64,000 bases of DNA from Larus michahellis (lineage: Eukaryota; Chordata; Aves; Charadriiformes; Laridae), in the NCBI RefSeq assembly GCF_964199755.1, contig NC_133896.1, positions 177,185,092 to 177,249,091 on the forward strand, read 5' to 3'. Below the pieces are notes generated by a model. The model was not told the DNA's origin and searched no databases. It was given only the letters and a program-made list of their open reading frames with translations. The translations under genes were made by a program, and so were the position numbers. Shown here piece after piece: positions 1-43,324 of the stretch. Within the stretch, counting starts at the first letter, position 1, and each line of letters begins with the position of its first letter.

Positions 1-1374
1 TGAACAGACGCTGTTCAAGCATGTAGGAATACAGTTGGGAAAAACCAAGTGCAACTTGAAAGTAGAAAGGGAGGCAAAGGGCAACAAGAAAGGTTTCTAT
101 AAGTACAGCAGTAGCAGAAAGAAGACTAATGAGAGTGTGGGCTCATTGCTCAGAGGGGCAGGGAATATTGTGACAAGGGACATGGAAAAGCTCAGGTACT
201 CAATGCAGTTTTTTCCTCAGTTTTTATCAGCAAGGTCTGCCCTCTGCCCTCCCAGGTCCCTGAGCCTCCTCACAGTCTGCAGGTGTGAAGCAGTACCCAC
301 AGTAGAAGAAGAATCAGGGAGCACTTAACCCACTTAGACATTTACATGGGACCAGATGGGATGCACCCGAGGGTGCTGGAGGAGCTGGCTAATGTCATTG
401 CGATGCTGCTAACACTTTTGAAAGGTCGTGGCAGTTTCAAGGTGGGGAGGCTCCTGGTGATTACAAAAAGGTAAACCTTGCACCCATCCTCAGGAAGGGC
501 AAGAAGGAGCATTTAGGTGGTTACAGACTGGTTAACCTCACCTCGGTCCCTGAGACAGTTAGGGTCCAAATCCTCCTGGAAGCCATTTCTAAACATACGA
601 AGGACAAGAAGGTGATTGCAAGCAACTAGCATGTGTTTATCAAGGGCAAACCATGCCTGACCAACCTTGTTTTTTCGTTTCTTTTCTGTGATGATGTTGT
701 GCACAAGGGGAGGACAGTGTGTATTGTATACTTTGACTTTAGCAAGCATTTGACACAATCATCTCCTGTAGTCTTCTTATCACCAAACTGTTAAGATATG
801 GGCTAGATAAATGGATGATAAGGTGAGTGGAAAATTTGCTCTACTGTTGGGCTCAACAGGTTGTGATCAGTGACGCAAAGTAACTTGTCTGGTGGCCAGT
901 AACTAGTGGTGTCCCTCAGGGATCAGTTCTGGGACCAGCAGTGTTTAATCTCTTCATTGATGACCTGGCTGAAGACCTTGCAGATGACACCGAACTGAGG
1001 GGGGAGCAGTCAACACACTGAAGAGCAGGGCTGCTATTCAGAGGGACTTTGACAGGCTGGAGAAATGGGCTGTTAGGAATTTCATGAAGTTCAACAAAGA
1101 CAAGTATGAAGTCTTGCATCTGGGATGCATTAAATGCATGCAACAATGCTGGCTGAGGGTTGGCTGCTGGGGAAACAGCTTATCTGAGAAGGACCTGGAG
1201 ATCCTGGAGGATGAGAAGTTGAACATGAGCTAGCAACATGACCTTGTGGCCAGGAAAGCCAACAGCATCCTGGGCCATCTTAGCAAGACAGCAGCCAGCA
1301 GGTCCAGGGGGGTGATCCTCCTCCTCTGTTTGGCACTTGTGAGACTGCATCTGGAATAGTGTGTCCAGTTTGGG
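1..1374 (+). mobile_element. CR1 LINE, decayed ORF2 fragment, cut by the window start
   Basis: A non-LTR retrotransposon copy covering part of ORF2, the endonuclease/reverse transcriptase polyprotein. The first 200 bases give a CR1 linker-type frame (GNKKGFYKYSSSRKKT). Around 280-400 comes the stretch ending in GPDGMHP-like sequence. Near 735-760 lies the decayed motif A (reads FDFSK with a frame slip before FDT). At 955-970 the catalytic motif C reads FIDD. From 1085 to 1374 it continues into the C-terminal region shared with the copies at 11.9 and 22.8 kb, then stops short of any 3' tail. Many stops and indels show an old dead copy. A short direct repeat (GGGTAGATGAA, twice, around 1373-1394) marks its right edge. 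The left end lies outside the window. Confidence 0.9.
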
Positions 1375-3620
1375 TAGATGAAGGGTAGATGAAGATATAT
1401 TTACAACGGCAACATCAAGTGGCATCTAGAAGTCAGCATAGGTAGTTAGGCAGGGTCACAAACCATAGTACTATAGAAACAGATCCCAGGTAGTGGTAGG
1501 GGGAGTTCGTACCACGTTGTGTAAATCCTTGTCCTGCAATTTTTAAGGTTGTGTCCATTGCTGGAATTGTTCCAGCAAGCACCTGTGCCAAATTACGGAT
1601 CCTATTTTTATCTGAGTGGCTGGAGGTTCCGAATCCAGTTTCCGCCTTTGAAAATGATTGATATTGAGCCAAAGAACAGGGATAGCCAACCTGTATATGG
1701 CAAATAACGCTTATTAATAATGGAACATGAAACTGAACTAAACTGATAACCATAACGATATGCCTGGTCAGTCAAGAAATGCAGAAATTTTCATGTCATC
1801 AGCAACGTTTCAGCCAAAGTATGTAAGAGCGAAACAAAAAAGGGAAGCGTGTCCCAAAACTGGGACAATTCTCACATGAGTATAACCCATCTGAAAAGAA
1901 ATATCAACAATAAAATACTGGGAGAGCCCGAAAACTCATAACTCTGTACACAGTGTAGATGATGCATGCTAATTCAATCCTCTGTGAACTGGCATTTCTA
2001 GCGAGGCTGTTCCAAAATGTTATTAAGGGCACTGCAGCATATTGCAGAATGTGTTGGCAATGCCAGAAACAGAGGGAAATCAGGAACATAGCAAAAACAC
2101 AAGGCAGCTGCCAAACATTGGTTTTCTTTAAAGGTGGGAAGCAAAGATACTGGGGTTTTTTTTTTAAGAGTGAGGAAAAAATGTCGGGAGTGTTTTTTGC
2201 ATGTCTGTTCACAAGGGCTGAGGAGGCTCAACGTAGCGGTTGAAACGGGTTTAACGTGTTCGCGTTCTGTGCGTAATTACACTTGGGGGAACACATTTGA
2301 CAAGAAACCAATAGCAATATATCAGTGCCTGCCTAGGAGCGTCTCAGTTGTTACTGTGCAGAAACTCATGAGCCCTTGGGTCTCCACAGTGACTGCCAAC
2401 TTATACTCCTACCCTCCAAAAGCTTAAATCCCTGCCTCCTGAAATTAATTAAAAAATAAATAAAAAAAAAAAAGCTCCATGAACTGCAACACATCAAAGG
2501 TAATTTGGAAAAGCGGCGAGTCAAATCCTAGTTTCATTTTTACTGTTGCAACGTGGTAGCTTTCAGAAAGTTGATCAATGAATGCAGATGCTGGGAAGTG
2601 AAAAATGTAGGAACTGTATTTTGAAAGGTTCTTACGCGTGATCCAGGTGGGTCACTTGTCACAGAAACTGCGCAGCGGATCGTGGCAAGTACTGAACAGT
2701 TAAAATTGAGATGCTGAATGAAGCAGAATTCTGGCAAAGTACTTGGTGCTGAGTAACCACTGAATCACACATGGTATCAGCAATAAAATGAACTAACTAA
2801 AAAATTCCCGTAGGGAGAAATGGACCAGCCAGCAAAAAGTCCCACTGGAGTTAAAGCTCTATGAATGTGGAAGACAACTAGAAAAGATTTAAGTAGCACT
2901 CCTCCATTGACAAATCGTGCCTGGAAGAAAGAAGAGTCAGAAATTAACTTTACTGCTGGCTCAGAATCATTTAATGTTTTTAATTCTTTTCAGTTAACTG
3001 CAGTAGGGGAGGCTGACCATGAAAGCACTGTAGAAATCTGAGGAAAATATTACTCCATATAAAAATGAAAAATATGAGTGATACGTTTTTAAACTCAGAA
3101 TAAAATCGCAAAATGAAAGTATAAGCACTTGTGACTGATTTAAGGGCTTGCATCCAGCTTCGCTTAGCAAACGGTTCAGGTGCTTGAAGATGTTACTGCT
3201 TCCCAGCTGTTTCTTGCGGTCTCTTTGTAACCGGTTATCGCCCTTTCGCAGAACTGACAGGAGGAAATGTATGCCCCTGCACAGGCGACTTCAATACGGG
3301 AACGGTACCTTCTTCAAGCCCACCTTGGCTGGTGATTGAAGGCTGGCTGTCAGCGTCTGCGTTTAGCACAGCAGAGGCACAAGCAGACGTTCCCTTGTGC
3401 CAGCCCCTGCACTGGGGACGGTAATGGAGCTGTGAGAAAACTTGCCGACAACTGCAGGAAGTTTTGCTGGGTTTTATCTGTCAAAGTCTTAAACCCACCA
3501 AGACCGTCTTGCACTTTTAGAGGGCTTTTTTTCTTCTTCTATGTGGGAAGGGAAGTTGAGGGTCTGAGTTACAGGGATGAGGGGCTAAATGAAGGAGTAG
3601 CTGTTAAACGAGCAACATAA
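1375..3620. other. Intergenic DNA, nothing recognised
   Basis: No coding, RNA or repeat family was recognised. A minus-strand frame of 106 codons at 1433-1753 has no motif I know. There is an A-rich stretch at about 2450-2475 and a mildly GC-rich stretch at 3150-3440. An old, unrecognisable transposon is possible for 1400-2300 but cannot be supported. Confidence 0.4.
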
Positions 3621-4111
3621 GATCATAGAACCATAGAATAGTTTGGGTTGGAAGGGACCTTTAAGGGTCATCTAGTCCAAACCCTCTGCAGTGAGCAGGG
3701 ACATCAACTAGATAGATTTGCTCAGAGCCCCATCCAACCTGACTTTGAATGTTTCCAGGGATGGGGCATCTACCACCTCACTGGGCAACCTGTGCCAGTG
3801 TTTCACCACCCTCAATCGTAAAAAATCATTTCCTTATATCCGGTCTAAATCTACACTCTTTTCGTTTAAAGCTGTTACCCCTTGTCCTATTGCAACAAGC
3901 CCTGCTAAAGTTTGTCCCCAGCTTTCCTGTAGGCCCCCTTTAGGTACTGAAAGGCTGCAATAAGGTGTACCCGGAGCCTTCTCCTCTCCAGGCTGAACAA
4001 CCCAACTCTCTCAGCCTGTCCTCATAGGGGAGGTGCTCCAGCCCTCTGATTATTTTTGTGGCCCTCCTCTGGACCTGCTCCAACGGGTCCATGTCCTTTC
4101 TGTGCTGTGGG
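3621..4111 (-). mobile_element. CR1 LINE, 3' end fragment
   Basis: Minus-strand CR1. The left edge is the 3' tail (ATCATAGAACCATAGAATAG), followed by the conserved terminal segment (GGTTGGAAGGGACCTTTAAG) and then the antisense C-terminal part of ORF2: the conserved NRLP-like block, the RKKFF-like block, and the antisense of the ERVQRR-like region near 4075. It is 5'-truncated at about 4111, as usual for this family. Point changes and small indels break the frame throughout, for example about 3830-3960. There is no flanking target duplication, which is typical for CR1. Confidence 0.93.
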
Positions 4112-5608
4112 ACTTAACATTCATACAGATACTCGGTTGGAAAGAAAAGGACAGACGCATTGGAGTAGATCTTCCAAGGACTTTCAAAGATCTCAGTGGG
4201 TTTCAGAACACAGATGACCACATTGCCTTGCTTTTGCCACTGTCCTACGCCCTCAGGTTCAAATTCCTGGGAAAACACCGTACTGAAACAAAAAAGTGCT
4301 TTGGAACAGGACAGTTACTGCTCTGCAGGAGGAAAGCAAGCGGAACAGCGTGTACCATGGGTGCAACTTCCTGGCCAGAGCAGGAAGCACAGTGAAAAAA
4401 AGGGTGGAATCTTTCATTCCTCTATAGGTATGAAATAATGAAACCTGTAAAGTGGGAACATTTTCCACCACAGACTAGGGTATACGTTTCTGTAGAGAAA
4501 CATTTGAGATATTTTTCTGCCCTTGATGTAAAAAACCCAATGTATTCTTTTGGCCATTTTCCTCCCCATTGGGAAATGTTGTTTTTGAGGATCACCGTCT
4601 GAGTTCTTTTTAACAGATGTTTCACATGAAAATACACCTTTCTGACAGTCTAGAGGTTGTTAAGGTATACATAGATGAAATTTTGATGTGAGAAAAAGAG
4701 TAGGCTGACAAGTGACTCCTAGCAGCTTTGAAAAGAGTTAGAGCTCCTGGAATAAAGCAAAAAGAAACAAAAAAAATTGTAAATTTCCTACGGTGGAAAT
4801 AGCGTACCTCATTAAGAAGCTAACCCAACAATATATACAGGGAAATGGAAGTGCAGCTGAGGCCGTCACCTACCTGCCTTAACAAGTCGGGAGGTACTTT
4901 CTTTATTTTTTTTTAATGTTTCTCAGAACTGTGTTGTCAAAACTAGAGATCACTGCCTCAGAGAGGCTAACAAATGCAGACTGGTGATGAGAGCAAATGG
5001 AGAGGCACTCCTTGGCTCTAGTAATTAGGTGTAGGAAGTTTTGTCTTTATTAGTGAGAATGTTATTTATGAGGTGTTGGGTGGAAGCTCACCATAAACCA
5101 CTTCTTGCCATTGCCAAAAGCACCTCACAAACACCCTTTCTACACCTTGGAGAACAGATACTCCCTTTTTTCAGCTCTGGGTATATGATTTCAGACTGAA
5201 TTCACATCCGGGGAAAAATGCGATCGTGGGTATATTCCCAACAGCAGAGCTCTGCAACCGACAATTTAATCTGGTCCAAAAAGTGTTTTTAACATTTCTG
5301 AAATGCATTTACGCATTACCAGTTGTTTAGTCCTGTGAGCTGCCACTGCATCCGTAAGACATAGGAGAGTAGTGTGAGAGGTTTCCAGAACAGGTATCCA
5401 GCCCTGATGCAAAAGGTCAGACATCCCTGGCATGAAGGTTTGGCACAAGTCTGAAGAGGGATTATGAGTCTGTTGACCTGATAAAGGAAAAATATCAAGG
5501 TGTCTGATCTCAGATGCAATTGGGATTACTGGTGGGGGTGAGATACTAAGGAAAGAAATAATACTACTGTTGTATTACGACATCTAAAATAAAAATGGAA
5601 AGTAATGA
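4112..5608. other. Intergenic DNA, nothing recognised
   Basis: AT-rich sequence with no family recognised. I looked here for reverse transcriptase or RNase H sequence belonging to the integrase relic that starts near 5610 and could not recognise any. A 120-codon plus-strand frame at 4033-4395 starts inside the neighbouring CR1 and has no known motif. Confidence 0.4.
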
Positions 5609-5609
5609 T

Positions 5610-6455
5610 GATATAATCATAGCGTATTCCCAGCTATTGCTATTGATTTATGGATGATCCTCACAATACTAGATGAGATTTTCTCTAAATACGCTAGAAT
5701 AATGTTTCCAAGATGTTGCACAAAAGCTATTTCAAAAGCTACAAAGAGGGAACTTAGGCATTGGAAATATAAGAAATGGAAAGGAAGTATTTCTAAGTTT
5801 GTTGCGTATGCCAAAAATAGAGGCCAAGTCAAATGAAAGAGCTCCTGTTGGCACCACAGAAATTGTTGGACCCCTGGAGCAAGGTAGGCATAGATTTGTT
5901 TATGCTGGCTCAAGAAGATTAATATTTGTCCTAGCTTGCTATTTTCACTTTCTGATGATAGCTTTACTAGAAAGTATTGCAACTGAGTGGGCAATTAGGC
6001 ATAACAAATTATTTTCTGGTGTAGAAAGAACGAAACTTAAGCCACAAAAATTAGGAGATAGCTTAAAGAATTTTGTGGGGAGTGGAGCCATGTAACTGCC
6101 AATCCTTGTTATCTCAAATCTAAAGTGTTGTTAGAAAACAATATCAAAATAATAAAGTACTGTAAAATAACCTGCAGAACCAGACTGATCTGTATTTAGG
6201 TTAAATTACAGAAGGGCAATGATTAAATTTAGGTTGTCATCCATTGATGTTTTACTTGACAAGATGCTGAAAACTACTGAAACCCAATGGCTGCTGTATG
6301 AAGAAAGGAGTACAGCAGGATAAAAAGCCTGCTATGATCTCATGACCCAAGAGCTGCCATCACTTCATAAACTGACACTATGCATCACGGAATAATGGTC
6401 TTAGATGACAATGTCAGGCTTGTACAAGAACATCACCCTTCATATCCACTGTGAA
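5610..6455 (+). mobile_element. Relic integrase of a Ty3/gypsy-type LTR retrotransposon
   Basis: Integrase joins retroelement DNA to the host genome. No long ORF survives, but blocks in changing frames occur in integrase order. At 5665-5690 there is a LDEI-type zinc-finger approach. At 5803-5919, in one frame, a Cys-x-Cys-Gln-Lys block carries what remains of the zinc-finger cysteines, a stop interrupts, then RPSQ and PWSKVGIDLF follow. The Asp of the last (5893-5895) matches the first catalytic Asp. A YL..YF-like stretch follows at 5921-5960. At 6062-6166, 35 open codons include FCGEWSHVTANP, and a Glu at 6134-6136 sits at the third catalytic position. A LNYRRA block lies at 6201-6218, and a YD..TQELP.L block of the C-terminal domain at 6333-6365. 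The second catalytic Asp is not recognisable near 6030. At least two stops and several frameshifts make it dead. Neither LTR is seen. The assignment rests on motif memory, not a search. A domesticated gypsy-derived gene fossil is the alternative. Confidence 0.72.
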
Positions 6456-6589
6456 AGGATGGGTGACCCCTTTTCACAAATGGTAGTAGGAGATACAGCA
6501 ATCTTGCCAAAAAATGCCGTCATGCCAAGGACATCTGTCCCGAGAAGGTCTCTGAAATAAACCAAAACAATTGTTAATTGCTGAGCCTT

Positions 6590-6860
6590 ACGAGGCTGCC
6601 ATCCAGGCCCCAAAGGGCCTTCCTGGCTTTGACCAGCCTTGCCTGGGGCCTCCCCCCACACCCTGCCCATGGCCCAGGGGCCCCATTTCAGCTCAGCCCC
6701 AGGCACCCAGCCCTGCCCTAAGAAACACTGGAGGCGTCCCTCTGTCCTGATTGTTGCTTGGGCATCCTGGATTGACCTCACACCTAGCCAGTGGCCTCGC
6801 ATATGTCTGATGGTCACTGGACTGCCATCTCAACCTGACGCTGCTGTCTAACACAAAGAA
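6590..6860. other. GC-rich patch of unknown origin
   Basis: A locally GC-rich stretch, rich in CCC, GGG and CCAGG but poor in CpG, in otherwise AT-rich DNA. It lies directly downstream of the integrase relic. It could be a decayed repeat or part of the same element's 3' side, but no LTR ends, poly-purine tract or other hallmark is visible. The frames crossing it show no known domain. Confidence 0.3.
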
Positions 6861-7199
6861 AACCCTTTGTGTGTCAGGCTCGTTTCTCCACTGGAGACTT
6901 GGTGTACGTGACAAGTATATTTCAGCATTTTATGTTTCAAGGCCTCACTCTCATTTCGGTTTCTTTGAATGATCTGACTTCAAAAGTTCCTATAAATTAA
7001 TCCATTTCAGTGTCCAGCTGAGATGCTCTAACTCTGCTTCTGTAAGAAGTGCCTGAGTTCCAATGTAATAACCTGCTTTTCCCTTTTGCGGTTGAAAGAA
7101 CCGTGTCCTTCTCACTAGTCAGCTACCTCATGCATGAAAATCATCAGTCGTCATAAGGGATGGGAGCCTTTTCTTGAAGACTCCAAAACTGATGAAATT

Positions 7200-7770
7200 T
7201 CAATCCTATCACTTCTAATTCTGACCGTGTCTCTGCTACTCCAGTGGAACAGAAAACCTTGCCCTTTTGAAATCTGCGAAAACAGCCCTTTTGAGCCTTT
7301 AGAATGTCACACCTTTATTTGTGAGATCCCAGAGCCCGTTATTACTGAATTCCTGTTCTCCAGGTAGGTACTTAAGAAATTTTTCACCTGTCTTCAATGC
7401 CTTAAGTAGTTTATTCCATGAGTTCCATGAGGAAGAGTTTCCATTTTAATCATCCCTGAGGACCTTGTCTGAAATGTCTTTGATTTTTCAAAATCTTTAT
7501 CAAATTGTAAACACCAGAGCTGGGCTTATTAGTCCAGCAGGATGACATGCAGCACTATGTAACCTTCCTACGCTTTCTGAGTATAAATTCCTGGGTTATG
7601 TGTAAGCATTGCATTACCACGGGAGAGCCTGTTCCCCTCATTTATTTCTCACAAGCTTCTTCAGATTCATTTCTTCCCCCATTATTTGTAGAGGAGCGAG
7701 TTTTCCTGTCACCATGTTGTTTTATTAAACCATGTGAGTTTTATTAAACTATTTACCAAGCAGTACAGAG
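7200..7770 (-). mobile_element. Ancient CR1-type LINE fragment, highly diverged
   Basis: Antisense CR1 of an old amniote-wide type, not the younger type seen elsewhere here. Recognisable pieces occur in the right order: GAGCCCGTTATTACTGAAT at about 7332, CAGGTAGGTACTTA at 7361, TTTAATCATCC...GAGGACCTTGTCTGAA near 7447-7472, then AAATTGTAAACACCAGAGCTGG at about 7502-7523 with CCAGCAGG after it. These match the 3' part of old CR1/L3-like consensus sequences as I remember them. Divergence is so high that the exact ends are uncertain. A similar copy lies at 53.3 kb. Confidence 0.68.
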
Positions 7771-10700
7771 TTCTCCATGATACTGACCGGTCACTCCCCT
7801 AATATTTTAGTCTTCTACAGACTTTAGGGGCAATATTTTTGTCTCTTCTTTAGAGGTCTGTGATAACAATTTCAAGAGCGTAGGGGCCCAAACCATCTAG
7901 GAGTATACCTATTTGGTGAAGAATACTGTCTTACTGTTTTGGTCCCATGAAGTAACCACATTTCATATTGATTTTGAGTTGGTTTGGTTCTTTGTCAATA
8001 TTGTGTCTTGAAATGACTTTAACTGTATTATTAGGCCAAAAAAAATCTGCCTCAAAACGCAGTAATTAAAGCTTCAGTCAGCAAAGGTGAATTTATGTGA
8101 CTACAAATAATCCCAGCTTTACCAGCGACAATTAAGTTTAATGGGAATGTTTTGCAGAGCCATGCAAGGTTCCTGGAGCTGATTTTCAGGTCTTATCTCT
8201 TGCCCGTTCAGGCAGAAAGAAAAAAAAATAATAAAAAAAAGAGTGCATCGTACTTTGCTCCCAAGGTAGAAATTTTTCCCATCATTCAGGGAATGTTTAT
8301 GACAAACAGCTGAACGCAGCACTGTTGGTCATCTGCCACCACGGTGATGCCATGCAGTCCGTCTCATGTGGTGGAAGAAGAGGAGGGAAGAAGAGGGAAG
8401 AACTGGAAGACACAGAAGAATGCAGAACATTTTCCAGGCCCTATCTCGCTTCAGCTCCTTAAAACCTTTGCGTTAAAATGCATTCCGCAGCATCAGGAAA
8501 ACAAAGTCCAATTTTGGGGAAAGAAAACGAGATTGGTTTTTTGGTGCCTGTTTAGCGTCAGCCATGAAAGCTGGCCCTTCCAGAACAGCCAGCCACTGAT
8601 CCAGAAGAAAAATATTCAAATAAGAGAATGGTTAATCTCAGCGTGAGGCATCCCACAATGATTTGATTTGAGACCCTATATTGTGAGGCACATCTGAGAA
8701 ATAGTTAGTGGCTTAACTGTCCCCGAGGAAGCCCGAGAAATGAGTCACTGAAACTAGAGCACCTGTTATTTATGCACTCCATTCGTAGCCCAGCTGCAGG
8801 TAGAATAAAAAAGCTCAATTCCAGTTGCAGACGCAAAGTATTTAAACATCTACTTACATGTGCATTAAGTAGATCATACGCAGTAATCAAATCGATTTAT
8901 TTCTTTTTCAAAACATTTGGATACATTTAAAATTATGATTAATTATTCTCCTACAGTACTGTCACACAGCACTACTTACAAATAAGTCTGAACCAAAAAG
9001 TATTAACACTATAATGTTAATATTAATAAGCAGATCCCTGGAAAAGGTTGATACATTTTTAAAAGTAATTAAAGTGGGAGAATCTATGGATAACATTTTA
9101 AAAGCCTGTAGAATTTATTAAAAAATACATGGCCATAGAGTTTGAAACTAGTTTGTAGGATATCATAGCAAGTTTTCTCTTTGGCAATGCTTGCTGTTTG
9201 GAGTAGAGACCACGTACCTTTCTTTGTGTTGGCATTGCATCTATCATGCTGTGGAATGCTAAAAGAAAATAAAAAAATGGTGCAACTGCAGTCTCGAGTA
9301 GTCAAAAGGGCTGTTTTCACTGATTTCAAAAGGGCAAAGTTTTCTGTTCTGTTTTTCTAATTCTATAGAAGTGTTATACTCAAATGCTAAATGAGTTTTC
9401 CAGAAGGCCTATTTTAATATCGTAAAAGCAGATCCAAAATTCTACCAGCACGTTTATGACAGAAATAAGTATGGGTAGGAAGCAGTTAAAAAAAATGGGC
9501 CAGCCAACTCAGAAGAGCCTAAACCGTGTACTCCATTCTATGAATAATCTAAGTTTCAAATACCTCTTACTTGCGTACCCCTTTCTCCTTAACGAAAAGG
9601 ATAAATTTAAACTACAGAGCTGGGCTGTATTCCATTTCCCCTCTACTGTTTTAAATAAGATATCCAAATTCTTTCCACTTGTCATGGAGCATTAAGGGCA
9701 TATTTTCATCGTGGATTATATAGTATCAATTGGTAATGTGCCACGTTGTGATGGACCACAAAACGTCATATAACCTGGAGCAAATCTCAGATGTATGGAA
9801 GAAATTCTAGTTGAACAACAAACCATGAAAATCTAGGGGAAGCTGGGCCTCTTTGACTACAATTAAAGCATGCAGCAGATTTGTTCCACCGACAGGTTTT
9901 CCTGTGTTCTGTGATTGACAAGGTTTGTTCAACTTCTGCCGCACTGCGCGTACTAAAGTTTGTGCATGAAATTATTACCATGTATGGATTATACTGATGT
10001 TCTACAAACCGAGAATACAAAAGCGATTAAGCAAACGAGGCAAACCCCAAGGATACAGTTCACATCCCTTTATGTTTATAGTTATATTCCTCTCTTAAGC
10101 AGGAGACAGTACTTTTTTTTTTTACTTCCAAATCAATATTTTATTGAATGGATGTGGTATTAGTCCCTTTGATAAGTCTGAGAGAAGAGTCTTCCATTGA
10201 CAGGAGATGCACCTTCTTATAGTGCCCTGCCACCAGCAGCACCACACGGTGTCCCTAACTTTTCCCCGGCTTGATGCCAGTGACCAGTTTCTTCTTCTAG
10301 ATACTCAGTTCCTTCGCCTTTTCTGAGGATCCAGAAGAGTCCTAGGGACAGCTGTGGTTTTGTAACGAAGACTTTGATCCTTAGGGTTTTCACTAAAACG
10401 GCTGACTTATTTCAAATCTGCAATTAAATGAGAATCATTTTCTTGGTCAGACTTTGAATCAGTAGTCTCCGTAAGAAAGGTGACATGTTGTTACCAGCTC
10501 ACAGGCAGTGGGGTTTCAGACCATCCTAGGTATTGCTAAGTTGCTTGCTCGTGGTGCCGTGTGTAATGACACAGGAGATGTAGGAAGATCCACTTTGAGT
10601 AGTTGGTTTCTGAATATTTTGTTGCAACCATGCGTTTCTCTTAGCAAGTTTTACGTAGGTGTAATACCCTCACAAAGCCCTGTCTGATGATTTGTATACA

Positions 10701-11917
10701 TCAGTGTTGCAGTAGTTGGGGGCCAGGGGGGAAATAACTACAGGCCAGGTTTCACGGCCAGATTAATTTTTACCGCAGCCTTGGATTTTTACCACACTTT
10801 GATGATGGAGGACCATAATAATCTGTCGCAAGTATCTTCAGATGTCTGTATCACTGTATGTAGAGTGCTGGATTGAATTTGGTACAGTGGCTATTATTGT
10901 TACCATGAAACAAGCTTACTGCTTCGTTATTAAGAAGCAAGGAAAGAGCAGCGTGTGCCTGACCTTTGAATAGCATAGGTGATTTGAAAAGACACATTCC
11001 TTTTCAGATTTTCTTTAAGCTGGTCCCTTCATCCAGAGTTCCTATTGCTGGCTATTTTTAGACAATTTTTTGCTATAGAGATAAATACAGCATAGGGTAA
11101 ACGTGTAAATTGGTGCTCAACTGAAGTAAAAGATCACTTTCCTGTGCTACACTTACTATTTCTTCACTGAATTTGGGCATAAAGGCTGGCATCTACTCAG
11201 GAAATACAGTGATTTGAGGACATTTGATCCAGAGAAATGATGAAGAGTGACCCAGTCAAAACCAATGGGTAGCAGTGCTTCTGAAATTCAGTCCAGTATT
11301 TCTATAGCTGACACATTCAGCATGTAATTAGCCCCACACATTTCACCTGTTTCTTCCTCCTTTTTATTATGTACGTAGGCTACACCTTTATCTTAGGAGT
11401 GGTACAACAGATAACTGGTTCTGAGAGGAAATATAATCACTATAATCGTGTCTATCAGCTTGTTTTTTCCTGATTCTTGCTGTCATTTTAGTCCTGGGTT
11501 CTGTATTTCCATAACTCGGGAAAACAACAGTAACAATAACCAACTCAGTCCATTTCTATACCTTGAAAGTTCTATCGGTAGCATGCAGCCACCAACATTG
11601 CTGCAAACAGTGTGCACGCTGCCTGTGCCCACGACATGCATCTTCGCAAAAAGTCCAGGACATTATGGACAAGTATCACCGTTCACTTCCTCTCCGTGCC
11701 CTTTCTGAGGCATTTTTGTAGCGAGCTGTGAAATACCAGTAGTGCACTGAGAGAATTATGGGAACTCAGAGCCAAGTTTGCACAGGTACTTTTATTTTGT
11801 CTTTAATTTTGGGGGTTTTTTTAAGACTTTTTAGTCTTTAAGTCTGTAAGACTGCACTGTTCCTCATTCCTTCTAGCGTCTCACACGCAGCTCCTCAGCA
11901 GACCAGCAGAATGTAGG
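7771..11917. other. AT-rich intergenic DNA
   Basis: Mostly featureless. Short A- or T-rich tracts occur near 8219-8241 and 10111-10122. The segment 10108-10400 read on the minus strand ends in an AATAAA-type signal followed by an A run and is discussed as a finding. No CR1, RNA gene or convincing exon was recognised in the rest. Confidence 0.4.
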
Positions 11918-12752
11918 CTCTACAGAGAGACTTGGATAGATTGGACTGATGGGCCAATGCTAACGGTATGAGCTTCAACAAGGCCAAGTGCCGGGTCCTG
12001 CACTTGGGCCACAACAACCCCAAGCAGCGCTACAGGCTGGGGGAAGAGTGGCTGGAGAGCTGCCCAACAGAGAAGGACCTGGGGGTTCTAATTGACAAGA
12101 GGCTGAACATGAGCCAGCAGTGTGCCCAGGTGGCCAAGAGGGCCAATGGCATCCTGGCTTGTATTAGAAATAGTGTGACCTGCAGAAGGAGGGAGGTGAT
12201 TGTCCCCCTGTACTCTGCACTGGTGAGGCCACACCTTGAGTATTGTGTCCAGTTCTGGGCACCTCAATACGAGAGAGATGTCGAGGTGCTGGAGCGAGTG
12301 CAGAGGAGGGCAACGAAGCTGGTGAAGGGCCTGGAGAATAAATCTTATGAGGAGCGATTGAAGGAGCTGGGACTGTTTAGTGTGAGGAAGAGGAGGCTGA
12401 GGGGAGACCTCATCACTCTCTACAACTACTTGAAAAGCCATTGTAGAGAGGTTGGTGCTGGTCTCTTCTCACAGGTAACTAGCGATAGAACAAGAGGGAA
12501 TGGCTTCAGGCTGCAGCAGGGTAGGTTTAGGCTGGACATTAGGAAAAAATTCTTCACAGAAAGAGTGGTCAGACGCTGGAATAGGCTGCCCAGGGCGGTG
12601 GTGGAGTCACCATCCCTGAATGTGTTTAAGACTCGTTTAGATGTGGTGTTAAGGGATATGGTGTAAGGGAGAACTTTGTAGAGTGGAGATGATGGTTGGA
12701 CTCGATGATCCCAAGGGTCTTTTCCAACCTAAATGATTCTATGATTCTATGA
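11918..12752 (+). mobile_element. CR1 LINE, 5'-truncated, nearly intact 3' end
   Basis: A relatively young CR1 copy. It starts with the AGAGAGACTTGGATAG segment, covers the C-terminal part of ORF2, then the 3' UTR with GATGATCCCAAGGGTCTTTTCC, and ends in two copies of the tail octamer (GATTCTATGATTCTATG) near 12735-12751. The ORF2 frame is uninterrupted for 232 codons, so decay is limited. The catalytic reverse transcriptase core is missing because of 5' truncation, so the copy cannot move by itself. Confidence 0.96.
11968..12666 (+). pseudogene. CR1 ORF2 C-terminal fragment (after the reverse transcriptase core)
   Basis: This 232-codon open frame is the longest clear piece of retrotransposon protein in the window. 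It carries the conserved order of blocks after the RT palm: KCRVLHLGH, the EKDLGVLID block, [76 protein letters not shown] and WNRLP. It runs in frame to a stop (TAA) at 12664-12666, close to where CR1 ORF2 normally ends. The first Met is simply the first one after the truncation point. It is not a host gene. Confidence 0.93.
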
Positions 12753-15700
12753 ATTCTTTTGAGACATAGCAGCTAAGTGGGATATTCCAGGAATAATTTA
12801 GTAACTACAGAAGCTGTTCAAATAGTGATCAGAAAAGGGCAATCTTCTAAGTAGATGATGTAGGTAAATCATGAAAACCACCAGGTCTTGTAGGTACGTA
12901 TTGACCGGAAGGACTACCATGCTAGGTGTGACTGAGCAATGAATAAATAAAGTTGTGGAATAAGCATTGCAAAAAAGGTGTTATTTATGATAGGGATATG
13001 CCCTGACCTCTATCTTTGAGTCTGCAAATACATTTTGAGTACTGTTATGGAGTTTTATGAGCATTAATGGATCATTGAGGTTGTGTCATTAACGTCAACA
13101 CTGACTGCTCAGAGGAAGTAAGTAAAGCCCGTATCTTTAGAGAGACAGAACTTAAGAAAAAAAGTTATATTTGGGCTTTTTTCTTTTTCTTTTTCTTTTT
13201 TTTTTTTTTTTTGGCAGATTAACACAGTAGCAGTTATTGTTGAGGGGCAAGACTACACTTTGCTTCCTGGCCTCATAAATCCCTATTCCGGATATCAGGA
13301 CTACTGCTAGGAAAGATCTGTTTGCTATCAAAGCAAGTACAGGATGCTTTTCTTATGATAAAAGACAAGAAGAGTGATGGGGTGCATCACGACAAAGTTG
13401 GTTTTCAGTAAAGAAAATATTACCTTCTTTTTTCTCCCTTGTATGTTAAATATGGCATAATATATGTGTGAAGCAAAGAGGGAAATACGATTATCAAGGT
13501 AAAGAGTGAGGTTAAACACTTGATTTTGAACAGCCTGTCAAGATGCTATATAGCTGAAAGCTTCTTTATGGTTTGTCACAATATAGCAATATGTCTTGTA
13601 CATACTTCTCCCTCTATTTGACTTGCAGAGGAATTTGAAATGACTTCTCAAATGCATGTTCTGAATTCAGTAGGAGTTTGCTGGCTTGCCGTCTGATATT
13701 TCTGATTTTTGAACATAGATGCATAAATCATTACCCTTTAAAGCCTCTTCTAAAATTTATTGGATTATAATTAACAAGGACCAATTTAATAAAAGAGGGA
13801 ACACTTTTTAAAACACATTAAATCTAACCAAAATTATTATGACATTTAAGAGCAAAGAGCAAGGTGCTTAGTGTTCCAACATTAATCATGTGCCAGTATG
13901 GATGGGATTCAGTTCACCTCACTATAGCCATCTAAAAATAAGTCATCACACCTCATCTACTCACCTAAATTCCTATTAAATCAATGGATAGAGACAGGAA
14001 TCCCCAGGGGCCACACCAGCCCATTCTCCGATAGGTGAGATAAATAGAGACCTATTTCCTACTAGGAAATATAGACAGAGCTAGATGATGTGAGATAGGA
14101 GCTTAATTTATTTGTCCACAGATAAGGATCTAGTGCTGTTTGAGATCACTTATGGTATCCAAGATACCCATCCGCGTGGGGATGGCAGATGTGACCCAGG
14201 ACCGACCCACAGAAGACTCTTCCACAGTGGCAGCTGGAGGCTAGACAGGTAGGCAGAACTATGGGTACCTTGCAGTGCCTAAAAATGCACTAAACACGTG
14301 ACTCTTGCCCCTGAATCATGTCCAATGACTATAAAGGATGCTCAGGCACATCCAAGTACCAACACTTACCTGACAGTATGTACCACTGCCACACCGTCTA
14401 AAACCAGTAGGTTTGCAGAAAGAAGGAAAACTCAAAACAGACTGAAAGTTTCTCCATAAAGATACTCAGAAAAGTAAGCAGGTTGGCATCGGGAGAAGAT
14501 GGTGCAGAGCCTCTCTTCATCCCCTCTGACTGCTCTGGGACACGTAATGTTGAGCTGAAGATCTACAACCACCAGCTAAAATTATTCCTAGGGAATGAGT
14601 GCAAGAATGCTGCAGGGGAGATTGAAAAAACATATTATAAGCAGTGGATATCACCGTTGGTATAGGTTGATGAAGGCAAATTAGCAAAGTAGCTTGAAAT
14701 CACCCTGGCTTGCATGATACCAGCAACGGCATTAACAGAGAGCACCACAAAGTAGTTTTGGAAGAACAGCATCCTGCTGCTTCAGTTGGCTTCCATTCCT
14801 AGTCCAGGAAAGGGTCAAAGACTGTCTTCCTGAACACAAAAATGGGATTGTTAGAAGACAAAGGAGACATTCATGCTTAGAGCAACAGAAAGTCTACAAG
14901 CAAAGAATGATTGTGGCTTCCTAGCTTCCCAGGCCAAAGCAAAGTGAACACTATCAACCACCCACACTGCCTTTACCACGTCCCTCTGCCTCAGTCCAAG
15001 TACTGCAGGAAAGTAAATTGTTCTTGACTTTAGCAATGGGACTTGAAAACCATACCTCTGGTTTCTGCAGTCTTCAATTTACATGCATATCTTACAAGCT
15101 TACCCTTAATGTGGGCTGACTTGCCACTGGATTGTTTGCAATGATAACTTTAATATTTTTTTTATGCTCGTTTGTATTTATTCTCAGGTATGAGTTGCAC
15201 AAAAGGTTCTCTTTATACTTATGCCCCCCTGCCTCCCACCACCCTTGCCCTACTCATTGAGTACACTTTTTCTAGCCGTGGCTGAGATTCCTTCCTCCTG
15301 GCCACTGATGGCTCACCATGATGTTTAGGACCACTCCATTGACACAGAAAATGGCATTCATCACAAGCATGGTCCTGGACTTTCTCCTGTCTTCTCATGT
15401 ATTCTGGTAGAATGGGTCATATTTCTGTCACTTGATATTGTCAGCAATCTGTGTTGTAACCCAGCTTTATGAGTCCTCTGATCATCCAAATGAACTTTCA
15501 TGGTCCCTGCTAGGAGGCTGAGGACTGCTGCCAGACACTGTCCTCAAGTTCAGCCCGAATATTCTCTCTCCCAGCTGTGCATGTTTGTTTGCAGAGCTGG
15601 CAACTGTTGTCAAAAGGGTGGACTAGCAGGAAGTAAAGCCCGTTTCTACATCGTGACAGCCATTTGAAAGCTGTTCCAGGAGTTTCAGGGACAATGACAG

Positions 15701-18002: not shown

Positions 18003-18399
18003 GATCATAGAATCATTGAATCATAGAATCATAGAATAGTTTGGATTGGAAGGGACCTTAAAGATCGTCTAGTTCCAACCCCCCTGCCATGGGCAGGGAC
18101 ACCTCCCACTCGACCAGGCTGCTCAAAGCCCCATCCAATGCAGCCTTGAACACTTCCAGGAATGGGGCATCCAGAACTTCTCTGGGCAACCTGTTCCAGT
18201 GCCTCACCACTCTCACAGTAAAGAATTTCTTCCTAATATCTAATCTAAATCCCCCCTCTTTCAGTTTGAAACTGTTACCCCTCGTCCTATCACTCCACTC
18301 CCTGATGAAGAGTCCCTCCCCATCTCTCCTGTAGGCCCCCTTCAGGTACTGCAAGACTGCTGTAAGGTCTCCCCAGAGCCTTCTCTTCTCCAGGCTGAA
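18003..18399 (-). mobile_element. CR1 LINE, 3' end fragment
   Basis: Minus-strand CR1 beginning with a tail of at least three octamer-like units (ATCATAGAATCATTGAATC and on), then GGATTGGAAGGGACCTTAAA, and the antisense C-terminal ORF2 blocks. Read from right to left these give EKRRLWGDL, the DRTRGNSF block, RLDIRKKFF and HWNRLP. The open minus-strand frame at 18058-18483 holds this peptide fused at its start to unrelated flanking DNA, so that Met start is not real. It is 5'-truncated near 18399 and moderately young, since the ORF part is still in frame. Confidence 0.95.
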
Positions 18400-19580: not shown

Positions 19581-19919
<339 letters not shown>

Positions 19920-22758
19920 CCAATATGTTTTTTCTTAAAACACTAATCTCTGTTCTGCATCTGTCTACTCATTTACCCTCTGGTAACGCTGTCAGCTCCC
20001 CCTTTCCCAACAGTTCTCTCTCTCTCTCATGGAAAAACTGGGCAGGAAGAGGTCATTGAAAACATTCTTGGGGATTGAGGCTACCGGGGCTTGCTGCTGC
20101 ACAATTACGCAAGCAGATCCTTTTGAAAACAACTTTTAAGAAGGAAATAGGGAGCTTATAGCGACCAAGTGAGAACAGTACTTATTGTAACTGCGTGCCC
20201 AGTACTGACTTTCCGGCCTTATACTGTAAATTGGGCTGCGCTAAGGCATAGCTGAAGGGCATGAAATTGAAGATAGAGGAAAAAAAATCAGACAGCTATC
20301 ATTTTAGCCTTTTTTCTGTAATTTAAACTCTTAGTAGAGGAAGCTTGGAATCCTGTGAAATTTGATTTTAGTAATAAAGAAAATGTAGCAGCGTGAGCAT
20401 AGGTGGCAACCCCCAAATTTCCACTTGTCGTTACACAAGTCATTTTCCTGTGAACAGTTTGGGCTATTTTGACTTGTTTTTTATTCTTAACATGGGCTTC
20501 TTTCGAGGGTTTTGGAATGGTGAACTCAGAGCTGAGCTAGGTAAACACAGTTATGGATCCTGAGTAATCTTTCATTGCCAATGAAAGTAATGACTTTCTT
20601 TTGCTTGCCCTTTTTCTTTCTCTCTCTCACTTTGATTTATACCCTGGAGTTTTGCTCAGTGATTTTTCAGAAGCTTCAGAGAAGTTAAAATAAACATGTT
20701 CAGCGCTGAACAGATTCATCGTCTCTTCATATTTTCCCTCCAGTTCTTTGCCACGTTCGCAGAGCTGCCGTGCAGAATCGCTGCCTCTGGATGACAGCCC
20801 CCGCCGTCCTCTGAAACCACATCTGTCCCAAGCGGAGATGTCCTCCTGGGGCAAGTTTCTCCTATGGAGGGGCGGCAGTACTGTGCCCTTAAAATTGTCT
20901 GCCCTCTGGGTTAGGAATCGTGTTTTATCTGGGTCACTGGTCAAGTTTATCACATCTGCATGCGCAACCATCTAGGCTTGTCCGAAAGTCTGCTGGAGCC
21001 AGTGGGAGGCTGCGCAGGGACAGGGTCCAGCTGCAAGGTCAGGGGCTGAGTTTGGGAAATACCTCCGCTAGTGACTCTGCACATCACAGATGCACTTCGG
21101 GGGAAAATGACAGGATAGGAAAGGACAGGAAAATTTCAGACAGGAAAATGACAGAAGCTGATAGCGTCTGGCTCTAGCACTTATTTATTAAATTCTCCTC
21201 TCCTCTCCTCTTCTTTCCCCTCCCTCTCCTCTCTCCTTTCTCCTTTTTCCAGATATGTTTTTTTGGTTTCCTATTTTACCTGTCTAAAACAAATTCACCA
21301 AGCCAGCTGAAAATAATCTTACACATGCTGGATCTTTCACACTCTTCAAATACATGTATGGGAACACTGAAATTTTCATTTTAATAAGAACTAGATCATG
21401 TTTTCTGCTGATTGCTACAAGTGCAACTCACCTTACTGTAATAAACCTATTTAAGTCAGAAGGGCTACTTAGCATAAAAGAGGGCAGAATTTTAAGATAA
21501 AAGATGAAAATTATCACACTTCTTTTTAAATGCTGTTGAAAATTCAGGGCTAATATTTAATAGAGGGTGCAGGCCACAAGAGTGGAGTCATTATTATACT
21601 GTGTTTATACATTTCCCTGTAAACTGATTTTACTTTATTTTTACACTGCTGCCACTATGGAAAGCAGGACTTGGAAAAAAAACCCACAAAACCAAACCAA
21701 ACCAAACCAAAACCCCTCAGCTACTCACAGCTGTGCAGATGTCCCTAACCAGAGCTGCTTTTACGCTAATGATTTTAGATGCTCATATCAGGGAAATCTC
21801 CAGTAATTGGGTAGCTGCCACACTCCCACTTCTGTGGATGCCTCTCTCCTCCTTTTGCTTTTTCTGGTTGGTGGCTCCTTCGCATTGTTGCTCTTTATCA
21901 TTAACGGACCAGTGGCATATTGCACTCGCAGCTGGTACTGGGCTTTCCTGCCTGTATGCCTTCATGTATAAAAACCCACTGAATCGATGCCTTGCCAACA
22001 TGTCTAAAGGTTGAAAAAATAACTTAAAAAATGCTGACATGTGTTTGTTTTCTCAAAACGAACCTTGTGCCTGGAATGTCAGAAGCTCTAATTGCCTGGG
22101 GAATTTCTTCCTCTGACTGTGTGAAAGTTGACAATAAAAAGAAATTTTCTTACAGGGAAGTCTTTTCTTTTTTTTTCTTTTTACCAAATTGTTTCACTGT
22201 GAATCAACGTTACGACTAGAATTACGAAGCAGCAAAGGGAGATGGGGCTTTCACTCAGACCTTGTTTTGCCCTGAGTTCTCAGGACCAGGCCCACCTCTG
22301 TGTTTCCCGGGATGTTCCCACAGCTGCGGAGGCGGTGACAGCTCTGCCTCCGGACAGGACGAATCCCCAGGGCGCAGGGATAACAAGGGTAGGATGGGAG
22401 TAGCTGCTGCAGGGGTAGGACAAGGCTGCTGGGGTTAGAGGTGCCCAGAAGGGTTTGGGGAAGATGCCTCTTTCCTTTTCCATGGGTGCAAAGCAGATGC
22501 TGGGGCTTGATGCCAAGCAGGTATCGCTGCAATAGGAGAGAGGGGAAAAAAAAAGGTAAATTAAAAAAAGGCATAATCTAATCCTCCTGCATCAAATAAC
22601 CCTGCATTGGAAAGAAATATTTTCAACTTGTTTTAATCTAGAAGAAAAAAACCAGTGGATCTCAGAATGATTTAACTTTCTGGGTAGCATCAGAGGAAAG
22701 ATTGAGACTGACTGTGTGTCAGCATTACATATGCCAATATGTATATAGTGAAATATAT
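19920..22758. other. Intergenic DNA with small simple repeats
   Basis: Contains a short CT run at 20015-20028, a pyrimidine tract at 21192-21250 rich in CTCCT, and a short (AACCA)n-like array at 21689-21715. An exon-like segment on the minus strand at 22296-22526 is described as a finding. AT-rich sequence with TATA repeats precedes the next CR1. Confidence 0.5.
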
Positions 22759-23572: not shown

Positions 23573-26500
23573 CAATAAATATAGGCTGAAGCTTGAAAAC
23601 TGCGCACTCGGGTCCTCTCCCAGCAGTGTGACTGCGCAGGGGGGGCTGCCCTGAGGTACCACCCTGTTCGTAGGCCAGGTCCAGGTGCTGCTGGGAGCAT
23701 CAGGGCTTGGCAGCAGCCACACGGGCAGTGCTGCCACCCTGGGATCACCCCAGCCAGAGAACCGAAGCCAGCATCGAAAATGTCCTGCAGGCTTTGGGGA
23801 GCCACTCCTCTGGCGCGTACACAGCGTCCCTCCCTTCCGCAGGGCATTGCATCTGTACCGGGGCTGGCCGGGCAGCACAGGGTGCCACAGAGAGCAGGGG
23901 CTCAGTCTCGGCTGCTAGGTCTCAAGCCAAAAGTTACTGATATTTTATGTAAAGTTCATGTGACTTCTGGTGATTTCATCTGAACTCTTGCCACGCAAGG
24001 CCCGAGGTGGAAGCTTCTGTTATTGCTGGTACTTTTCCCATAGGGTCTGCCATAAATCAGGAACTGAAAATGAGGTGGGATACCCGAGGCTCCTGACTCG
24101 CTTTGCAAAAACAGGGTGTAATGTGCTGAAGGGGGAGTGTCAGGCTTTGGCTTTCTTAAATTTCCTGGCTATTGTTGATTTATATCAGATCCTTAAAGCT
24201 ATTTAAACACAGTGTTTTGTTGGTATTTCCTTAGTGTAAATGAGTGAAAGGGATGACATATTTCATGGAAGCCTACGTATGTATTCTTCTCAGAAAGACC
24301 CAAAGGGTTCGTTTGGCATCAGCACATCCATTAGGCGATTGTTTAACGTGTACCAGGTAGACTTTGTGGCTCCTAGAGGTTTGCCATGCTTTCTTCCTTC
24401 AAACAGATACCTATAGTATTTTGTGTATGGCATGTATACAAAATTAGATGTATTTATACTATATACCAAACCACGCTCCATAAAACTCTCTGGTCTCTCT
24501 TATAAAACATTTGCTTGGGATATATGCCATGTTGTGGGAAAATACTGTACCAAATTAGATTTTACAAGTTTTCATGCATGCTCATTTAGATAATTTATCC
24601 ACCTCACTATCAGGATCTTTTAAGAAAAAAAGATCTTTCAAAGTTACCAAAGGAAGCATATGCCATATTAATACTGCCAGGGCTTACTTTTAATTAAAAC
24701 TGCCCTGAAATAAAACAACAATAAAAAACATATGAAAATAAGTATCTTCAGAGTAATTACATTAATTCCTGTGTTTTTTCATTCTTACTAGAGGCCAGTG
24801 ACAATTCTGTGAACAATTCACAAGGACATCCCTTTTTATCAGTTCACACTTGGTCTAAATGAATGGTCTTTTCCCTTTTTTTTCCGATGCGGTGATAAAA
24901 GACCAGGGGTGTGCAGGTGAGAGCTGAGTTCAAAGCTCTGCCTCAGTGGCTGGAGACAGCAGAAGCTGGGCAGCAGCTCGGGGCCATGGGGAGTCCCCCC
25001 CACCACCACCAGTGACGGTGACACTCCTCAGACAACACTGATTTGGCCAGGAGCTCAGCCCAACAGAAGGGTCTCAAAAGCCAGGAGGGCAAACCACAGA
25101 GCAAGCTGCTTGGACGGACAGAAAATAGTCCACAGCAAGGCTTCTCTTGACCTCTGTCTTGCTCACCTGCAAAAACATCTTTTCCGGAAAATTCCCCAGG
25201 AAAGCGCTGCATTGGCATCATCCTTTGAATTCCTCGCCAGCAAATTCTCCCTCTGAAGAGCGCCAGCTTTCAGCTCATCTTCTTGCCTGTGTAGCTTAAA
25301 AATGTCCCCATCAAATTCCAGGTGGCATTTACAAGGATGACAACACGTTGATGCTGTGCAGAGCGTCCTCCCTGGCTGCCTCCAAAGCTTGCAACGAAGA
25401 CTATAAATTCTGGGAGCATTTCTGATTTAAAGAGTGCAGCAACCAGGTTTCTAAACCCAGATCATGCCTTTACCGCTTGCTGGTACCATCATCAAATCAC
25501 TAAGCCCGTGTTACGCTGCGTTTCTCAGACCCAAGCCATGTGCAATGGCAAGTTAAAAAAAAAAAAGTCCAGAAACTGCCCAGTCCCACTGAAAATGTGG
25601 GAAAAGGCTCTATATTTCAGACATCTTTGTTCTTATGCTATTTTTTCTTCTTCATAATACTAAAAATGCAATTTTTCTCACCAATTAATTCTGTTTTTGT
25701 TCAGGACCTGCAATTAAATTACTGGAAATATTATAATAGTAATTTCTCACAATCTAAAAGAAGTAAAAACCAAACCATTACAGAATACATCCAGCAGCTA
25801 CAAAGAAGATGCTCTTTTGACTTGAAGGTGCGACAAAAATATGTTTTTCCTACTGAAAGATAATGGCAAAGGCTAACCAAGACCAGCTGGGAAAAAAAAT
25901 CATTAAAAATTACTTGAATTATAGGGAAATATTGCTCTCTTATTTTAAAACACATGCACACACACCCAGGAGTGGGGAAGTAGGGTGTACCCTTTTTGTA
26001 AATGTGGAAGATTTACCTTTTCCCAAATTAAACAGTATGAATCCCCAATCATGTCTCATAGCCTAAATCTCAAATAAAAGTTGCACGGGTTAAATTGGTA
26101 AGTTATTACAAGTTAAATAACCAGAGGAGAATATTAGTCAAAAGCTTGCTCCCACCAAAGATTTGATATATAGTTTCTGAGAAAAAAAGAGACTGCTCAG
26201 TTCTGAAATGGGCCCTGGAGACATTCAGATATTATTTAATAGGAAGAGGGTTTATCCTGGAACAGACCACGGTGCGTGAGAGTGACTGAGCAGGATGAAA
26301 GACTCCAGCAGCAGAAGCACAAGGTGGTATCTATCACTCCAACCTTTTCATTTCCCAGCCAGACATATGGCTGAATCTTGTAATTTAAATGCAGATTATC
26401 TGTCCCAGCAGGAGTGCCTGAACATCCTGGAACCAGTGTCACGTTTCAGTAGGGGTGGCGGTGACTGTTTCGTGTTGCATCATTACAAAATATTTTGTTC

Positions 26501-28043: not shown

Positions 28044-28100
<57 letters not shown>
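28044..28100. repeat. (GATA)n microsatellite
   Basis: About 14 uninterrupted GATA units. On the minus strand it encodes a spurious Ser-Ile-Tyr-Leu repeat frame. It is pure, so length is probably variable between individuals. Confidence 0.98.
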
Positions 28101-29844: not shown

Positions 29845-29890
29845 CACAGAATCACAGAATGGTTCAGGTTGGAAGGGACCTTAGAGATCA
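29845..29890 (-). mobile_element. Older CR1 LINE, extreme 3' piece, split by a younger CR1
   Basis: Short minus-strand CR1 terminus (ACAGAATCACAGAATGG, then TTGGAAGGGACCTTAGAGATC). It stops where a second CR1 tail begins. Its continuation is found about 1.3 kb further right, at 31184-31409. Confidence 0.8.
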
Positions 29891-31183: not shown

Positions 31184-31409
31184 CTAGTTCCATCCCCGCC
31201 ACCTCCCACTAGACCAGGCTGCTCAAAGCCCCATCCAGCCTGGCCTTGAACACTTCCAGGGATGGGGCATCCACAACTTCCCCGGGCAACCTGTTCCAGC
31301 GCCTCACCACCCTTACAGTAAAGAACTTCTTCCTGATATCCAATCTAAATCTACCCTCTTTCAGTTTGAGGCCATTACCCCATGTCCTATCATTACACTC
31401 CCTGATAAA
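31184..31409 (-). mobile_element. Older CR1 LINE, second piece of the split copy
   Basis: Starts at CTAGTTCCATCC, the sequence normally just inside a CR1 3' end, and runs through the CTCCCACTAGACCAGGCTG segment and the antisense ORF2 C-terminus ([21 protein letters not shown] on the minus strand). It is 5'-truncated at about 31409. A short internal deletion near 31190-31200 removes the usual CCCTGCCATGGGCAGGGA stretch. Together with 29845-29890 it makes one interrupted element. Confidence 0.88.
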
Positions 31410-43289: not shown

Positions 43290-43324
43290 CCCGGCTGCCG
43301 GTGGGGGCGGGGACGCTCCGCATG

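What the first reader, a model, noticed from the sequence alone, without database searches (positions are those of the whole stretch)
5610..6455. Fossil Ty3/gypsy-type integrase in a bird-like genome
Reading the three + frames in turn gives integrase blocks in correct order and at credible spacing over about 850 bases: a zinc-finger remnant, the PW.KVG.DLF block with the first catalytic Asp (5893-5895), an EW..HVT..P block with a Glu at 6134 at the third catalytic position, a LNYR block (6201-6212), and a YD....ELP.L C-terminal block (6333-6365). Such an ordered set is very unlikely by chance. Metaviridae are abundant in fish and reptiles but, as far as I know, very scarce in birds, so this would be an old germline fossil or the remnant of a domesticated gene. 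It carries stops and frameshifts and is not functional.
Basis: partly seen in the sequence, partly recalled or inferred. Interest (0 to 1): 0.78.

Follow-up and report, generated by a model that had tools for sequence, protein, structure and literature searches.

The report
Ancient Gypsy integrase fossil in bird
The stretch is a badly decayed relic of the integrase of an ancient Gypsy-type jumping element, with at least five other decayed copies elsewhere in the same bird-sized genome, so it is a real but ordinary kind of genomic fossil that standard searches miss.

Summary
The blocks stand where stated. A profile of 15 Ty3/Gypsy integrases, run over six frames of the window, has its best hit at 5782-5901 (iE 0.024; next 7); 0 of 100 window shuffles reach that score. 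Decisive is the family: window 5772-6218 matches five other places in the same 1.4-Gb genome at 60-74% identity, and two of these match the integrase profile better than the window does (iE 6e-5, 3e-4). Differences between copies fall evenly on the codon positions: neutral decay, dead transposon copies, no domesticated gene. RT-like pieces lie in order upstream (4495-4879; 1 of 1500 shuffles), which favours an LTR retrotransposon; but of five other copies four show no RT and one is marginal, so a Ginger1-type transposon or a retrovirus is not excluded. No LTRs found. A second, unrelated Gypsy fossil (RNase H, 26176-26414) lies in the window. Pfam, PDB and protein searches of the finding itself gave nothing relevant. 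Age very roughly 50-200 million years (inferred). New member of a known kind; moderate interest.

The parts
4495..4536 (+). RT-like piece, region of the first catalytic Asp (RYFSALDVKN)
   Evidence: 18.1 bits against positions 68-81 of the 52-sequence Gypsy pol profile; part of a chain that 1 of 1500 shuffles reaches
4650..4685 (+). RT-like piece, YxDD region (VYIDEIL, second Asp is Glu)
   Evidence: 17.2 bits, profile 134-145; HMMER A3 hit 4626-4763, hmm 124-172, iE 3.1
4748..4879 (+). RT-like piece, region after YxDD
   Evidence: 18.8 bits, profile 167-210; HMMER A3 hit 4760-4873, hmm 170-207, iE 3.5, adjoining the previous hit
5074..5230 (+). possible RT tail or RNase H remnant, assignment ambiguous
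   Evidence: two incompatible placements at 13-15 bits, profile 253-285 or 357-398; not tested alone
5723..5811 (+). integrase zinc-finger remnant; only C-x2-C (5800-5811) kept
   Evidence: 12.5 bits, profile 501-527; copy L112 gives Pfam Integrase_H2C2 E 0.04, below the cut-off
5782..5901 (+). integrase block with PWSKVGIDLF, first catalytic Asp at 5893-5895
   Evidence: best hit of the IN profile in the window, iE 0.024; 0 of 100 shuffles; DNA matches to five other places
5916..6060 (+). integrase core continued, other frame
   Evidence: DNA matches to L109 (to 5972), L111 (to 6030) and L114 (5923-6218); the C2 copy keeps this part more clearly
6068..6160 (+). EW..HVT block with Glu codon 6134-6136 at the third catalytic place
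   Evidence: read directly; inside the DNA match to L114, which itself matches IN profile positions 103-177, iE 5.8e-5
6198..6370 (+). LNYR block and YD....ELP.L block, integrase C-terminal part
   Evidence: read directly; only up to 6218 supported by DNA homology
3611..4111 (-). CR1 LINE 3' end directly upstream, limits the fossil
   Evidence: blastn to other such pieces of the window, up to 77% identity; CR1 label recalled
26176..26414 (+). second, unrelated Gypsy fossil: RNase H in two frames
   Evidence: tblastn E 3e-5; Pfam PF17917 in two adjoining pieces, E 0.035 and 0.076, both below the cut-off; HMMER A3 iE 6.6e-7; 0 of 400 shuffles

Best explanation
A decayed, 5'-truncated pol remnant (RT pieces, then integrase) of an ancient Ty3/Gypsy (Metaviridae) LTR retrotransposon family. 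Inferred mechanism: the family copied itself through RNA and used its DDE integrase to insert in the germ line of a bird ancestor; the copies found have since drifted without selection, gathering stops, frameshifts and deletions. Shown: integrase-type homology, order of pieces, dispersed copies, neutral decay. Inferred: LTR-retrotransposon life cycle, age, insertion before the living bird orders split. As far as the sequence shows it does nothing now.
For: IN profile best in window, iE 0.024, 0 of 100 shuffles. Six places in G000, five beside the window (one of them also); each of the five matches the window fossil, E 3e-29 to 4e-7 for that 2.5-kb target. Copies match the Gypsy IN profile: L114 iE 5.8e-5, L112 2.9e-4, L109 0.01; L111 0.25 and L113 3.8 are weak. 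L112 piece hits Pfam Integrase_H2C2, E 0.04, below the cut-off. C2 copy L107: integrase chain 43.3, 0 of 600 shuffles. RT pieces upstream in order: 1 of 1500 shuffles; 4112-6600 as a whole: 0 of 1500. Differences by codon position, summed over: 109 of 346, 90 of 348, 104 of 349. One reference checked, L041, has Ty3 Gag-Pol as best PDB match, E 1.4e-104.
Against: No direct repeat of 30 bases or more in window 1-11000 or in the 9.5 kb round the C2 copy. RT is not significant upstream of copies L107, L111, L112, L114 (113/88, 42/35, 123/144, 152/146 of 200 shuffles as good, two settings) and marginal in L113 (11/4 of 200). DNA homology among copies was seen only in the integrase part. Pfam, PDB and protein searches of the window pieces gave nothing relevant. 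Blind whole-window chaining is not significant. The chain settings used were chosen after I had seen the region. No retroviral or vertebrate Gypsy comparators were at hand.
Confidence: 0.74

Rival explanations
1. Relic of a Ginger1-type DNA transposon, whose transposase resembles a Gypsy integrase but which has no reverse transcriptase.
For: DNA homology among copies covers only the integrase part; RT not seen upstream of four of five other copies; Ginger1 relics are reported in alligator, turtle, coelacanth and frog (PMC9004415 passages), and Ginger1 transposases share the whole Gypsy integrase architecture (PMC2836005 passages).
Against: RT-like pieces in order and at fitting distance upstream in the window (1 of 1500 shuffles; two adjoining weak HMMER hits).
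Confidence: 0.13
2. Old endogenous retrovirus (for example spuma-like) rather than Gypsy.
For: ERVs are the common LTR elements of birds (recalled); retroviral pol also matches Gypsy pol: the Gypsy query lists PFV integrase and retroviral RTs among its hits.
Against: The hits here are to Gypsy-only profiles, and to Pfam Integrase_H2C2 in copy L112; the PW.KVG.DLF style is, from recall, of Gypsy elements. No retroviral profile was compared, so this is weak.
Confidence: 0.1
3. Remnant of a domesticated integrase gene (GIN1, GIN2 or like).
For: GIN genes derive from such integrases and exist in birds (PMC3424704 passages).
Against: Six dispersed places, decayed; no third-position excess; RT-like pieces upstream in the window.
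Confidence: 0.02
4. Chance pattern of blocks.
For: Blind whole-window chaining is not significant; tblastn and Pfam negative for the region.
Confidence: 0.01

Closest known systems
Ty3/Gypsy (Metaviridae) LTR retrotransposons of vertebrates
   Same: Integrase with C-x2-C, D1 block and Glu block; RT-like pieces before integrase; dispersed copies
   Different: No LTR or clear RNase H found, gag and protease not tested; heavily decayed; exact clade not resolved (no vertebrate references at hand)
Paleozoic Gypsy protein fossils (Frith 2022, PMC9004415, passages read)
   Same: Short frame-broken pol relics missed by standard tools; its table 5 counts 83 other pre-amniote Gypsy fossils in human
   Different: Genomes used were human, alligator, turtle, frog, coelacanth and chimaera; the passages seen list no bird genome
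Ginger1 DNA transposons (PMC2836005, passages)
   Same: Transposase like the entire Gypsy integrase
   Different: No RT (recalled); here RT-like pieces lie upstream in the window copy
GIN1/GIN2 domesticated genes (PMC3424704, passages)
   Same: Integrase-derived
   Different: Conserved host genes; here broken dispersed copies

Membership tests
Ty3/Gypsy LTR retrotransposon | integrase core related to Ty3-type integrases | tested here: met
   reference set checked against Ty3 for one member, L041
Ty3/Gypsy LTR retrotransposon | DDE triad | tested here: inconclusive
   D at 5893 and E at 6134 present, second D not recognisable
Ty3/Gypsy LTR retrotransposon | H2C2 zinc finger | tested here: inconclusive
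   C-x2-C only in the window; copy L112 hits Integrase_H2C2 at E 0.04, below the cut-off
Ty3/Gypsy LTR retrotransposon | RT and RNase H encoded before integrase | tested here: inconclusive
   RT-like chain in window, 1 of 1500 shuffles; not seen in four of five other copies, marginal in the fifth; RNase H ambiguous
Ty3/Gypsy LTR retrotransposon | flanking LTRs | tested here: inconclusive
   none found: no ungapped direct repeat of 30 bases or more in window 1-11000 and L107; the fragment is truncated and so decayed that the test has little power, so membership is probable, not proven
Ty3/Gypsy LTR retrotransposon | gag, protease, primer binding site | not tested
   no references at hand
Ginger1 DNA transposon | transposase without RT, terminal inverted repeats, CCGG-type target duplication | not tested
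   TIRs and target duplications not searched; RT-like pieces in the window speak against
Endogenous retrovirus | better match to retroviral than to Gypsy pol | not tested
   no retroviral profile was built or held
Domesticated GIN-type gene | single locus, open frame under purifying selection | tested here: not met
   six dispersed places, even codon-position differences, stops and frame changes in the window

The most novel reading that the evidence does not exclude
Bird genomes, held to be almost free of Gypsy elements, carry an unannotated layer of very old Gypsy families, dead since before the living bird orders split and too decayed for standard masking: one 64-kb window holds two unrelated Gypsy pol fossils, one of them a family with at least six dispersed copies.
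Probability: 0.5. Interest if true: 0.5.

Novelty: new member of a known kind. Interest (0 to 1): 0.36.

Why it matters
If such relics are common in birds, the near absence of Gypsy from bird genomes is a matter of early extinction plus poor detection, not of never having been there. Dated copies would tell when the Gypsy lineages of the reptile-bird line died, next to the rise of retroviruses, which PMC9004415 (passages) reports as not found among the ancient LTR fossils where Gypsy is.

Tried and rejected
Eye assignment of 'HHKPLLAI' (about 5089 on) to the RNase H DHxxL motif: the distance from the YxDD-like site is short and the profile can also place it elsewhere, so it is left open. Pfam on whole frames and pieces of 4200-6600: only chance families (for example DUF2179 0.095, Op_neuropeptide 0.0024, below its cut-off), none of pol. 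PDB sequences: no pol match (one cysteine-rich protein at E 0.88), none for a piece of the C2 copy or of fossil 2. Protein database: nothing at E<=10 for two queries on the finding and one on fossil 2. Viral contigs by piece or pattern: no Gypsy recognised (translations, L003 only in part). Pfam scan of the three + frames of 43.0-58.0 kb and one + frame of 1-15 kb: nothing at 0.01. Pfam on six pieces of the C2 copy and four of L112 and L114: no integrase core family; H2C2 in the two L112 pieces only. Rfam: nothing. Frame-shift-tolerant single local score: RT 24 of 300 shuffles, whole region 36 of 300, integrase 5 of 300. Integrase half alone by chaining: 12 and 9 of 300. Sub-profiles (60 shuffles each): 0, 0, 28, 0, 3 and 50 reach the region's score; four of the six are single sequences. 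Extension of fossil 2: RT side 16 and 14 of 400, integrase side 302 and 245 of 400 shuffles as good, so not claimed. No other copy of fossil 2 found by DNA. Control: 4 of 13 other stretches of the window also match some of the copy loci; I take these for shared CR1 in the flanks but did not check. In one search the codon phase for L113 and L114 is arbitrary (a lookup failed); redid it. The D1 frame is used throughout although the reading frame changes inside the fossil.

Full report
Observation. The zinc finger keeps C-x2-C (5800-5811); I recognise no His of it. Asp to Glu is 241 bases, about 80 codons; in reference L037 the invariant columns are D68, D128, E164, so some 16 codons and a recognisable second Asp are missing.

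Direct searches of the finding gave nothing relevant: Pfam on frames and pieces, PDB sequences, the protein database, viral contigs. The collections seem to hold little vertebrate sequence, so I built references: a DNA pattern for the RT motif PFGL..AP..FQ found 94 stretches in bacterial and archaeal assemblies, many of them evidently eukaryotic contaminants with long Gypsy pol frames; 60 ORFs of at least 200 residues carry the motif and 52 went into a pol profile. One member checked, L041, has Ty3 Gag-Pol as best PDB match, E 1.4e-104. These references are probably distant from vertebrate Gypsy, so negative results with them are weak.

Test of the integrase. A profile of 15 of the 40 integrase segments listed (A2) was run with HMMER without filters over the six frames of the window, X at stops: the best hit of the 64 kb is 5782-5901, model 30-71, iE 0.024; the next is iE 7. 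In 100 shuffles of the window the best score was 7.5 bits against 8.5 observed. A home-made chaining score of single-frame pieces gave for 4112-6600 39.9 and 40.3, reached by 0 of 1500 shuffles of that region, and for RT alone (4112-5080) 31.8 and 32.0, reached by 1 of 1500; the integrase half alone is weaker, 12 and 9 of 300. These settings were fixed after I had looked at the region. As a blind scan of the whole window the same kind of score is not significant: 5 of 40 shuffles and 5 to more than 12 of 100 do as well, a - strand chain elsewhere is better, and the reversed window is better in three of five settings. Among 100 overlapping 2.5-kb windows of both strands the region ranks third, behind the two that hold the second fossil.

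Upstream RT. Three pieces of 17-19 bits lie in order at 4495, 4650 and 4748 (profile 68-81, 134-145, 167-210); HMMER with the RT-RNase H profile A3 puts two adjoining hits at 4626-4763 and 4760-4873, each only iE 3 and below two - strand hits elsewhere (0.83 and 1.8). The spacing to the integrase fits a pol order RT then IN. A CR1 3' end at 3611-4111 bounds the fossil on the 5' side. No LTRs were found.

The family. In the window's own genome (G000, 1.4055 Gb, 616 contigs; window at C1:177185092-177249091) the fossil matches C2:143206695-143206882 at 74%, E 3.3e-19. A search with that copy finds six places: C2:143.21 Mb itself, the window, C3:87.46, C1:175.63, C2:52.07 and C1:54.10 Mb, the last two at E 1-2e-5 (the tool calls its counts lower bounds). 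Each of the five others matches the window fossil, together over 5772-6218, at 60-74% identity. The copies match the integrase profile: L114 iE 5.8e-5 (model 103-177), L112 2.9e-4 (11-71), L110 which is the window itself 0.0065, L109 0.01 and 1.0 (E for the six loci searched); L111 and L113 are weak (0.25 and 3.8). The L112 piece gives Pfam Integrase_H2C2 at E 0.04, below its cut-off. The C2 copy scores 43.3 by chaining over 1 kb, 0 of 600 shuffles. This is the strongest evidence: a DNA family whose other members are integrase by profile.

Decay and age. Over the alignments differences fall on codon positions 1, 2, 3 as 109 of 346, 90 of 348 and 104 of 349: no trace of purifying selection between copies. 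K2P distances are 0.29-0.49, so 0.15-0.24 per copy; at recalled bird rates of about 1.2-3e-9 per site and year this is very roughly 50-200 million years. Not tested by synteny.

What it is. Most likely a dead copy of an ancient Ty3/Gypsy LTR retrotransposon. The main doubt: homology between copies is confined to the integrase, and RT upstream is not seen in copies L107, L111, L112 and L114 and is only marginal in L113, so a Ginger1-type transposon is possible; a retrovirus was not tested against. A domesticated gene is not supported.

Second fossil. At 26176-26414 (+) lies a clearer Gypsy RNase H relic in two frames: tblastn E 3e-5, Pfam RT_RNaseH model 51-75 then 73-105 in the two frames, each below the cut-off, A3 iE 6.6e-7, 0 of 400 shuffles. 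It has no other copy by DNA search. I read it as a different insertion, since it covers a part of pol that the finding's own pol remnant should also hold.

Known or new. PMC9004415 (passages) describes Gypsy protein fossils of this kind in human and uses alligator, turtle, frog, coelacanth and chimaera; it says that ancient vertebrates had many element types, unlike mammals or birds. PMC5486457 (abstract start, passages) describes low diversity of elements in five birds. Among the papers listed by searches I saw none whose title or abstract start is about Gypsy fossils in bird genomes; only the listed papers were looked at, and most subscription journals are not held. So: a new member of a known kind, moderately interesting because the host is a bird-sized, CR1-rich genome and two such relics lie in one window.

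Noticed in passing
26176-26414 (+): Second Gypsy-type fossil, RNase H in two frames, clearer than the finding itself.
   Followed up: yes
444-1374, 3611-4111, 11950-12757, 18009-18399, 22712-23569, 29883-31413, 55343-55924, 63227-63358: CR1-like LINE pieces in both orientations, 58-77% alike (label recalled).
   Followed up: partly
42001-44500: GC-rich island (74% GC at 42-44 kb) with tandem repeats of 18-141 bases; possibly a gene promoter; no Pfam domain in the + frames of 43-58 kb.
   Followed up: partly
19583-19919 and 28044-28100: Long AAAG (83 copies) and AGAT (14 copies) microsatellites.
   Followed up: no
7247-7294 and 9302-9349: Inverted pair of 48 bases at 94% identity, unexplained.
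   Followed up: no
Genome-contig loci such as L020, L024, L031 (Trichormus bin) and L041, L051, L064 (Erysipelotrichaceae SIG219 bin): Bacterial reference assemblies contain contigs with long eukaryote-type Gypsy pol frames, so they look contaminated.
   Followed up: partly
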